Part shown: positions 47,756 through 50,562 of the stretch, piece by piece
Numbering within the stretch: position 1 is the stretch's first letter
How the letters are laid out: every line of letters starts with the position of its first letter
Source of the DNA: Gracilimonas mengyeensis
GTDB lineage: Bacteria > Bacteroidota > Rhodothermia > Balneolales > Balneolaceae
Assembly (NCBI RefSeq): GCF_900182705.1
Contig: NZ_FXTP01000001.1
Span: 558,001-622,000 of the forward strand
DNA length: 64,000 bases
Direction of reading: 5' to 3'
Made by a program: the position numbers and the translations under genes
The notes under the pieces: model-generated
Databases searched by the model: none
What the model saw: the letters and a program-made list of their open reading frames with translations, nothing else
What the model was told of the DNA's origin: nothing

Positions 47756-50512
47756 ATGAATCATAAGCTATCCATTAACCAGAAAATGTGGATTACTGCC
47801 AGTCTCATTTCCATCATGTTTCTGCTTCTTCTATTCTTCTTTAACAGAACTCTTAGCAAGTCTGAAAATATCGGAATTTCCAATGCTTCTGAAGTGATGT
47901 ATGAGGACCAGAAAGACAAAGTTAAAGTGGCTACCCATAGCATGGCACTTTCTCTTGGAGAAATCATCAAATCTGAACAGGATGATCAACAGCAATTAGA
48001 AATTATCCGGGGTGCAGTGGACCCTATTCGCTTTGAAAGCGATCAATCCGGCTACTTCTTTGTTTATCATAAAACAACGGTGGTTGCCCTGCCCCCAAAG
48101 AAAGAATTGATTGGTAACGACCTTAGTGACTCTAAGGATACCCAGGGAATATATTTTGTACGGGAGCTTTATAAAGAAGCCAAAAATGGCGGAGGATTTG
48201 TGGATTATGTATTCCCCAAACCAGGCGCAGGTGATCAACCCAAAATTGGCTATGCAGAAATGATTCCGGGTACCGATTATTGGATAGGGACCGGCGTTTA
48301 CCTGGATAATATAGCCACAACAAGAGCTCACATTGAAGAGCAGATCGGCGAAGCGGTTCGTTCCCAAAACCTGATTATGTACCTGTTCGTGGTTCCCTTG
48401 TTTCTTGGAATTTTAGTGGCTCTATTCTTCATTTCCAGGAGTATTGTAATCCCACTAAGAAAAGTATCGGAAAACTTAAGTGATGCTGCCAACCAGGTTT
48501 CTTCGGCCTCGGCCATGGTGTCACAATCGGGACAATCTTTGGCTGAAGGCTCAACACAACAGGCTGCTTCCATTCAGGAAACTTCTGCTTCTCTCTCTGA
48601 ATTGAACAGTAAGACCCATGAAAACAGTGAGAATGCCCGGCGGGCTGATCACTTTATGCAGGAAACAAATACCGTAATAGAATCCGCCGACCAGGAAATG
48701 AAGAACCTGGCTATTTCTATGACTCAAATTTCGGAATCAAGCAATGAAATACACCGGATTATTAAAACGATTGATGATATCGCCTTTCAAACCAATCTGC
48801 TTGCATTAAATGCGGCCGTTGAGGCTGCCCGTGCCGGAGACGCCGGAGCAGGTTTTGCCGTGGTTGCCAGCGAAGTTCGAAGTCTTGCCGTACGTGCAGC
48901 AGAATCAGCCCGAAACACCACACAGCTTATAGATACCACTTCAAAGCGTATTCAGGAAGGCGAAGAATCTGCCGAACGAACAAAAGTAGCCTTCTCCCAG
49001 ATTCAGGACTCCTCTTCTAAAGTTGCGGATATCATCGCAGAGATTTCAACAGCCTCGGAAGAACAAGCCAACGGAATTGAACAAATCAGCACAGCGGTAA
49101 ATGAAATGAATACCGTAACCCAGCAAAATACTGCCACCGCTGAGGAAGCCGCTGGCTCTTCGGAAGAAATGGCCGCCCAGGCTAAGGAAATGGAGAATAT
49201 GGCCGTTGAACTCAGCCTGGTAGTGAACGGAAATCAAAACCAGTCGGCTTTAAAAACATCTTTTAGCCCGTCGCTGAAGAGCTTTGCCCCGGGTAAAAAA
49301 TCATGGGCCCTGCGCTCCTTCCTGATACTGCTCTTTGCCACTTTTGGATTGGCAAAGGCCCAGACGGTAAAGATAGGTGGCTTCGTATCCAGTGAGACCT
49401 ACTTTGACAGCAAAGAAGGCATAGCCTCACGCGAGTCAAATGTGTTATTGTTCTCCAAAAAGCCCATGTATGATAACCTGGGCAACGACCTCACCGATGT
49501 ACGGTCGTTTCACATGGTATCCTTTAACAGCCGCCTGCGGGCATCTGTTTCAGAGGTTGAAGCCTTTGGAGCCAAAAGCAGTGCCGTCATTGAATTCGAC
49601 TTCCTTGGCACCGGCGAAAGCTTCGTTAATATGCCCCGCATGCGCCATGCCTATGTCAATCTTGACTGGGAGAAAAGTAGCCTGCTGATGGGACAATACT
49701 GGCACCCCATGTTCAATCCCATCTGTTTCCCTCAGGTGATGGGCTGGGGTGGCGCAGCGCCTGTAAACGTTCTATCCCGCAACAACCAAGTGAGGTTTAC
49801 TTACCAGCTTAGTCCCAGTGTTTCTGCTAATATCAGTGCCCTATCTCACCGGGATTTCACCAGCAACGGTCCGGACGGTTATTCTTCCAAGTACATCCGC
49901 AATAGTGGTATCCCGGAAATGAACCTTCATATGGAATATAAAAACGAGTCGATCATGGCCGGCTTTACCTCTGGGTTCAAGTCTATCAAACCGAGAACGG
50001 TTACCCCGGCCGGTTATAAAACCGATGAAACTTTACAAAGCTGGCACGCAAACGCATTTATCACCTACACATCAAAGAAGATACATGCCAAGTTCACCAC
50101 TATCTACGGGCAAAATATGACCAACTTCCTGATGATTGGCGGTTATGCTGAAAAAAGTGTGCAGCCTGAAAAAATCACCTACACCAACCTGACCACCTCC
50201 TCCTATTGGACGGAAATAAGCAGTCGCGGGGAAAAATTCAAAGCCGCCCTTTTTGCCGGATATACGATCAATCATGGCGCCAGCGAAACCATTATTGGCT
50301 CTACTCCTGTGTTCTACGGCAGAGGCACGGACATTGCCTCCATATACCGCATCGCTCCTCGTATCACCTTTAAGAATGGCCCGCTGTTGTGGGGACTGGA
50401 ATACACCTGGACTTCAGCAGCCTACGGCACACCCGATATAAAAGGAAAAGTGCGTAATACGGAAGATGTATCCATGTACCGCATTCAGATAGCCGCTATT
50501 TATACTTTCTGA
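47756..50512 (+). CDS. Chemoreceptor fused to an outer-membrane beta-barrel
   Basis: AGGAG precedes the ATG at 47756 by 10 bases, giving 918 residues. Domains: membrane helix (12-30), single-Cache sensor (about 45-195, with SGYFFVY and [13 protein letters not shown]), second helix (206-230), HAMP, and chemoreceptor signalling coiled coil with tip [20 protein letters not shown] (339-358). It then does not stop. A lysine-flanked hydrophobic segment, [23 protein letters not shown] in two parts (514-525, 526-536), looks like an internal signal peptide with an AKA cleavage site. A 383-residue strand-rich barrel ending AAIYTF follows. Topology is consistent: cytoplasmic signalling domain, third crossing, barrel exported. 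Processing into two proteins is an inference. Confidence 0.88.
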
Positions 50513-50529: not shown

Positions 50530-50562
50530 ACAACCCGGTCTTATAATTCCAGGCCGGGTTGT
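50530..50562 (+). terminator. Probable terminator hairpin after the fusion gene
   Basis: ACAACCCGG and CCGGGTTGT form a 9-bp stem 18 bases after the stop codon. There is no long T-run after it, so its strength is uncertain. Confidence 0.6.

What the first reader, a model, noticed from the sequence alone, without database searches (positions are those of the whole stretch)
47756..50512. Chemoreceptor and outer-membrane barrel encoded as one uninterrupted protein
The sequence shows a complete chemoreceptor (two membrane helices, Cache sensor, HAMP, conserved signalling tip). It is joined in frame to a lysine-flanked hydrophobic segment with an AKA|Q signal-peptidase-like site, and then to a 383-residue barrel ending in phenylalanine. 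The membrane topology works: the signalling domain ends in the cytoplasm and the internal signal re-enters the membrane outward. I infer either a polyprotein cleaved into receptor and porin, or a receptor permanently tied to a channel. I do not know of a described chemoreceptor with an outer-membrane barrel. The fusion also suggests that barrels and chemoreceptors cooperate in this organism.
Basis: partly seen in the sequence, partly recalled or inferred. Interest (0 to 1): 0.88.

Follow-up and report, generated by a model that had tools for sequence, protein, structure and literature searches.

The report
Chemoreceptor fused to carboxylate porin
In one bacterium a sensor for small food acids and the outer-membrane channel that probably admits them are written as one gene, whereas relatives carry them as two genes, sometimes side by side; the two halves are most likely cut apart after synthesis, although a sequencing slip is not excluded.

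Summary
The 918-residue frame at 47756-50512 is real in this assembly: a sCache_2 chemoreceptor (residues 1-493), a 20-residue tail, an in-frame signal peptide (514-535, AKA|Q) and a 383-residue barrel predicted as a DcaP-like porin (Z 29.4 to 6eus). No HAMP was detected. Among 107 genomes with a strong porin match, only this one has the porin in a fused frame; no match to porin or sensor was found in nine congeners. Two-gene versions exist: chemoreceptor then porin in a same-family genome; a Cache sensor overlapping its porin by 4 bp in a Bacteroidales; porin beside sCache chemoreceptors, sometimes CheW, elsewhere in the phylum. Many other copies sit with acetate or lactate genes. So the porin is probably a small-carboxylate channel whose pairing with carboxylate sensors recurs. 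Best explanation: two genes fused in frame, and signal peptidase separates receptor from porin. A permanently tethered receptor-channel is contradicted by geometry: three residues separate the cleavage site from the first strand. Caveats: one assembly, no reads; the barrel keeps the fewest conserved positions of 76 porins (narrowly); its sensor pocket departs from the acetate type; an internal start or a one-base error is not excluded.

The parts
47756..50512 (+). whole fused reading frame, 918 residues plus stop
   Evidence: open throughout, single full-length locus in the genome
47756..49234 (+). chemoreceptor part, residues 1-493 (to about the end of the helical bundle)
   Evidence: Pfam; listing of the C-terminal ends of 14 other chemoreceptors; GC3 0.428
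47918..48340 (+). sCache_2 sensor domain, residues 55-195; pocket residues Y,F,L,V,Y,F,K against Y,W,H,F,Y,W,K of PscD
   Evidence: PscD contacts from PMC5062169 (passages)
48659..49120 (+). MCPsignal domain, residues 302-455
   Evidence: 7.4e-45; PDB matches 3zx6, 1qu7
49199..49201 (+). in-frame ATG (M482) with GGAG just upstream: possible internal start for the porin
   Evidence: sequence
49235..49294 (+). short tail, residues 494-513; its last codon GGT (G513) stands where a start Met would be expected
   Evidence: GC3 0.55
49295..49360 (+). internal signal peptide, residues 514-535, KK n-region, A-K-A|Q site
   Evidence: sequence; hydropathy 2.55 against family median 2.6
49361..50509 (+). 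mature DcaP-like porin, residues 536-918, C-terminal Phe
50530..50562 (+). 9-nt inverted repeat (ACAACCCGG / CCGGGTTGT) just after the stop, perhaps transcript end
   Evidence: read directly; not reported by the terminator scan, whose loop limit is 8

Best explanation
Two neighbouring genes, a carboxylate-type sCache_2 chemoreceptor and a DcaP-like small-carboxylate porin, have become one reading frame, probably by an in-frame loss of the receptor's stop, the intergenic DNA and the porin's start codon (inferred: KK follows a Gly codon where many relatives have M-K-K). The frame is translated as one precursor. Residues 1-493 assemble as an ordinary inner-membrane chemoreceptor whose bundle returns to the membrane; the 20-residue tail then hands the KK...AKA segment to the Sec machinery as an internal signal. 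Signal peptidase I cuts after A535, so the receptor keeps the signal as a third membrane helix (or loses it), and the released barrel goes to BAM and inserts as a porin. One gene thus makes the channel that admits a small carboxylate and the receptor that senses it in the periplasm. Shown here: the frame, the domains, the predicted fold, the recurrent two-gene pairings. Inferred: cleavage, insertion, ligand.
For: Open frame and intact domains; predicted porin fold, DcaP best by a clear margin. Signal segment as hydrophobic as the family's own (2.55 against median 2.6), basic KK n-region as in the M-K or M-R starts of 10 of the 19 other rows of A1. Unfused pair in a same-family genome: chemoreceptor, then porin after 51 bp (63 bp to its ATG); Cache sensor and porin overlapping by 4 bp in L053, whose porin lies in the fused porin's own four-row clade. 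Same-strand Cache/MCP gene within 1.5 kb in 13 of 70 porin loci: nine within 51 bp, four about 0.8 kb away behind a symporter; CheW in 3. Of the seven neighbours examined (L143-L149) all are sCache_2-HAMP proteins and six show the MCPsignal domain; in L146 the contig ends first. Carboxylate link: SSF/ActP symporters, acetate-CoA ligase, lactate permease and FAD dehydrogenase beside other copies. GC3 shift inside the frame, best at residue 459, within 2 log units 408-517, which includes the junction; 0 of 2000 shuffles as strong: two genes of different make-up. Porin single in G000 and not found in nine congeners.
Against: Fusion seen in one assembly only: 1 of 107 genomes with a porin match of 200 bits or more (union). 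The fused barrel matches 41 of 52 family-conserved positions, the lowest of 76 porins, though others come close (42 of 52, 43 of 52 twice); its nearest relative G062 has 49 of 54. Five of the eleven departures lie at 667-677, so relaxed constraint or decay is possible. The sensor pocket keeps 3 of 7 PscD contacts while 19 of 22 sCache_2 domains scored in 18 genomes keep 7. No reads, transcripts or proteins were available.
Confidence: 0.5

Rival explanations
1. Sequence or assembly error: in the cell the two genes are separate and overlap slightly, and a one-base indel near 49305 in the draft joins them.
For: An out-of-frame ATG lies at 49303, at the head of the signal segment; the porin is a separate gene in every other genome with a strong match; draft genome of 33 contigs. 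A mechanical frame fusion that looks like a frame slip in the upstream gene was met in G274.
Against: The KK n-region lies upstream of that ATG and in the porin frame, as in relatives' M-K-K starts. The receptor frame is right to about the end of the bundle. ATGs in other frames are expected by chance over such a stretch.
Confidence: 0.22
2. Real fused frame, but the porin is made from an internal start (M482, M479, M472 or GTG 490) inside the receptor's 3' end, so two products arise by initiation rather than by cleavage of one precursor.
For: In-frame ATGs at residues 472, 479, 482 and GTG at 490; GGAG stands just before the M482 codon.
Against: These codons lie in or at the end of the receptor bundle and need no second role; the leader before the cleavage site would be 46 to 64 residues long. 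Translation was not tested.
Confidence: 0.15
3. Real fusion but a dead end: the receptor works and the porin half is decaying or not inserted.
For: Lowest match to conserved positions of 76 porins, branch length 0.96 against a median of 0.32; no genome found shares the fusion; no porin match in nine congeners.
Against: 383 codons open with the C-terminal Phe, GQYWHPM core and a confident predicted fold; its sister in G062 has as long a branch (1.01) and is intact beside lactate genes.
Confidence: 0.1
4. A receptor permanently tied to its channel across the envelope.
For: None beyond the continuous frame.
Against: Only three residues lie between the cleavage site and the first predicted strand (starts at residue 539), so an uncut protein could hardly have the signal helix in the inner membrane and the barrel in the outer membrane (periplasm width recalled, about 15-20 nm).
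Confidence: 0.02

Closest known systems
sCache_2 chemoreceptors such as PscD (5G4Y) and the Vibrio parahaemolyticus receptor (4EXO/2QHK)
   Same: sCache_2 by profile and PDB matches 2qhk 2.9e-14, 5g4y 1e-10; equivalents of PscD Tyr90, Tyr143, Lys156 kept.
   Different: PscD His103, both Trp and Phe126 replaced; a porin continues the frame; short tail, while 9 of 14 other receptors listed end in ...DF.
DcaP porin (6eus) of Acinetobacter
   Same: Best structural match, Z 29.4, 2.8 A over 323 residues; DcaP3 of A. baumannii is needed for growth on several di- and tricarboxylic acids (PMC12338516, abstract).
   Different: Pfam DcaP does not hit this barrel (0 families) and hits 6 of 20 members of the alignment; the mature protein starts with strand 1, without the N-terminal extension that I recall for DcaP; genomic context points to mono- rather than di/tricarboxylates.
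Two-gene receptor-porin pair of G046 (L075) and porin-sCache receptor loci of G287, G160, G232, G156, G441, G354, G188
   Same: Same two protein families next to each other on one strand.
   Different: Separate genes; porin of G046 is in another porin clade; in the other seven the porin comes before the sCache receptor.
Bradyrhizobium fbcH cytochrome b/c1 polyprotein (recalled; searches listed no usable text)
   Same: A bacterial membrane protein joined to an exported protein through an internal, cleavable signal peptide (recalled).
   Different: Subunits of one respiratory complex, not a receptor and an outer-membrane channel (recalled).

Membership tests
sCache_2 methyl-accepting chemotaxis protein | sCache_2 ligand domain between two membrane helices | tested here: met
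   (3.4e-23); hydrophobic segments starting at 11 and 206
sCache_2 methyl-accepting chemotaxis protein | MCPsignal domain | tested here: met
   (7.4e-45)
sCache_2 methyl-accepting chemotaxis protein | HAMP linker | tested here: inconclusive
   no HAMP at E up to 1; none listed for the G046 receptor either, at E up to 1e-5
PscD-type C2/C3 carboxylate pocket | seven contacts Y90 W92 H103 F126 Y143 W145 K156 (PMC5062169, passages) | tested here: not met
   3 of 7 kept; the G046 receptor and the paralogue on contig C7 keep 7 of 7
DcaP porin | Pfam PF19577 | tested here: not met
   window barrel 0 families at E up to 0.1; 6 of 20 members hit, best 2.5e-6
DcaP porin | DcaP barrel fold | tested here: met
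   6eus first, Z 29.4, next 24.6; on a predicted model
DcaP porin | homotrimer | not testable with these tools
   monomer model only
Signal-peptidase-processed polyprotein | internal signal peptide with small residues at -3 and -1, N-terminus inside | tested here: met
   AKA|Q by sequence; hydropathy; no signal-peptide predictor was available
Signal-peptidase-processed polyprotein | one precursor, two mature products | not testable with these tools
   needs immunoblot or proteomics

The most novel reading that the evidence does not exclude
A chemoreceptor-porin polyprotein: one gene yields, after signal-peptidase cleavage, the periplasmic sensor for a small carboxylate and the outer-membrane channel that supplies it. 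It is the extreme form of a porin-chemoreceptor unit that, read most simply, has formed at least three times in this phylum, in which the outer-membrane channel decides which ligand a receptor can see.
Probability: 0.35. Interest if true: 0.75.

Novelty: new variant of a known kind. Interest (0 to 1): 0.52.

Why it matters
Chemotaxis work usually treats the outer membrane as a passive sieve. A porin that repeatedly sits beside carboxylate chemoreceptors, and here in the same frame, suggests that selective outer-membrane entry may be a tuned part of sensing. The fused gene gives a clean test: is the precursor cut, and does the receptor respond without its porin.

Tried and rejected
Another fused porin: none found. 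In some searches the other matches of 200 bits or more lie in frames of 540 residues or less (55, 37 and 60 rows including G000's; 107 different genomes). The 1013-residue frame of G274 (weak match) is a ChlI/Mg-chelatase (ComM-like) gene whose recognisable part ends at residue 412; the frame runs on, I judge out of frame, into a porin with its own Met: not a comparable fusion.

Truncated MBOAT gene upstream as a sign of local decay: dropped; the three frames upstream of 46172 show no long remnant, and I take it (recalled) for a short MBOAT-like family.

PscD pocket as a mark of porin-linked sensors: dropped, since unlinked sCache_2 domains in the same genomes mostly keep it too (19 of 22 scored keep 7 of 7; 2 of the 24 loci, L198 and L199, were not found by the local model and were left out).

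Lactate as ligand because the sister porin of G062 lies behind lactate permease: left open; G000 has no match to that permease (7 of 92 genomes have one).

Synteny of the flanks in congeners: no informative neighbours. Promoter and terminator scan: 9 promoter-like sites against 6.7 (sd 2.8) in shuffles, 2 terminator-like against 4.0: no use.

Literature: ten searches. No paper on a chemoreceptor-porin fusion or on this operon appears among the titles and abstract starts listed; several lists were cut (for example 12 of 65, 15 of 39). Only PMC5062169 (passages) and PMC12338516 (outline with abstract, and passages) were opened. The library holds open-licence papers only.

Full report
What is there. 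The frame from 47756 to 50512 is uninterrupted and the only full-length match in its genome. Pfam finds sCache_2 at 55-195 and MCPsignal at 302-455; no HAMP, and nothing on the C-terminal part. The three strongest hydrophobic segments start at residues 206, 11 and 522. The C-terminal ends of 14 other receptors from this genome, its genus, family and order were listed: they are long and polar, and 9 of 14 end in ...DF. Here the bundle ends near 493, a 20-residue tail follows, and then [23 protein letters not shown]. The genome lies in the same order as two records titled Balneolia bacterium: the contig lengths 60308 and 11959 of G027 and G035 equal those of L050 and L052; this is an inference from lengths.

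The barrel. Residues 538-918, folded with 23 relatives, give pLDDT 84.2 and pTM 0.82, with 17 strands of eight or more residues. Foldseek puts DcaP (6eus) first at 3.5e-16; the second look gives Z 29.4, 2.8 A over 323 residues, with OmpF-type porins next at 24.6 and below. Pfam DcaP hits 6 of 20 members of the family alignment but not this one. NCBIfam has no match at E up to 0.001 for the four porins that I gave it.

Relatives. In the order search 13 of 128 genomes have the barrel, in the phylum sample 127 of 394 (many weak), in the class 45 of 244, in the class of G441 67 of 341. Counting matches of 200 bits or more, these last three calls give 107 different genomes, and only G000 has the barrel in a longer frame. 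Nine same-genus genomes show no match to the barrel or to residues 1-245 of the receptor (7 of 244 in the class have a match, G000 included).

What the porin goes with. Among 70 porin loci with flanks of up to 1.5 kb, 34 have an SSF symporter on the same strand and no Cache/MCP gene, 13 have a Cache or MCP gene, 5 another carboxylate gene (acetyl-CoA synthetase, FAD dehydrogenase or MFS), 1 is the fusion and 17 have none of these; 3 have CheW. The loci are the best 30 of each of three searches, so they are not a random sample. Of the 13, nine stand within 51 bp of the porin and four about 0.8 kb away behind a symporter; the proteins of those four and of L235 were not typed further. In the one locus typed (L077) NCBIfam names the symporter VC_2705 family and the ligase acetate-CoA ligase. 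In G062 the order is lactate permease, FAD dehydrogenase, porin. The Cache neighbours of L143-L145 and L147-L149 are sCache_2-HAMP-MCPsignal proteins; in L146 the contig ends before the signalling part. In G046, same family, the porin's ATG stands 63 bp behind the chemoreceptor's stop (51 bp to an earlier TTG). In L053 a Cache-GAF-PAS sensor overlaps the porin by 4 bp. In 18 genomes chosen because they have the porin (some because of the pairing), 13 of 24 sCache_2 domains lie within 5 kb of it (positions).

History. In a tree of 76 porins (from 79 loci; short and identical ones dropped) the fused porin is sister to that of G062 (99/88), in a clade with L053 and L051; the G046 porin is in another clade (100/86 with G116), and the porin-first loci in a third. 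Read most simply the pairing has arisen at least three times; an old pairing lost many times is not excluded. GC3 is 0.428 in the receptor, 0.55 in the tail, 0.609 in the signal peptide and 0.571 in the barrel, against 0.445 (sd 0.060) for 36 frames of the window, this one included. The best change point is residue 459, interval 408-517, not reached in 2000 shuffles.

Results against. The fused barrel keeps 41 of 52 conserved positions, the fewest of 76, with others at 42 and 43; five of the eleven changes are at 667-677, between the GQYWHPM core and the SRN motif, where I would expect (recalled) the constriction loop. The sensor has Y,F,L,V,Y,F,K where PscD and 19 of 22 scored sCache_2 domains have Y,W,H,F,Y,W,K (contacts from PMC5062169, passages read); G188's porin-linked receptor shows nearly the same departure. 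So the ligand is likely a carboxylate but probably not bound as acetate is in PscD.

Mechanism. The receptor bundle runs out from the membrane and back (recalled), so its C-terminus lies close to the inner membrane and a 20-residue tail can hand the signal segment to Sec. Cleavage after A535 frees the barrel. Without cleavage the barrel could not reach the outer membrane, because strand 1 starts at residue 539 in the model. Hence a tethered receptor-channel is very unlikely, and a working porin needs cleavage or an internal start. M482, with GGAG upstream, is the best internal start.

Artefact. An out-of-frame ATG at 49303 leaves open that a one-base error joined two genes. Against it, the KK n-region precedes that ATG in the porin frame. 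Only reads or PCR can settle this.

Noticed in passing
L003, L005, L006, L007, L008, L012, L022 (C-termini): Chemoreceptors of this genome and its relatives often end in a conserved acidic tail such as LIPFDDDDDFSDF (7 of the 14 others listed have LIPF or LIPL), perhaps a docking site for CheR/CheB like the enteric pentapeptide (recalled).
   Followed up: no
L147:666-1154, L150:8135-8623, L146:5663-6139: A CheW-like gene directly before the porin in three genomes of family f25, so the porin sits inside a chemotaxis operon (Pfam CheW confirmed for L147 only).
   Followed up: partly
e.g. L065:7442-7861, L071:7390-7809: A protein of about 139 residues with a CxxC zinc-ribbon-like start stands just before the porin in loci of Lutibacter and other flavobacteria (cluster cl4, ten loci), perhaps its regulator.
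   Followed up: no
L162:2317-5346: In G274 a ComM-like gene runs on into a weakly related porin gene, giving a 1009-residue mechanical frame.
   Followed up: yes
L150:6904-8085 and L161:1023-1304: Porins that look broken: a TAA inside the match in G146 and a 93-residue fragment beside FAD dehydrogenase and lactate permease genes in G079.
   Followed up: no
L149:7945-9864: The porin-linked receptor of G188 has nearly the same unusual sensor pocket (Y,F,L,V,Y,Y,K) as the fused one.
   Followed up: partly
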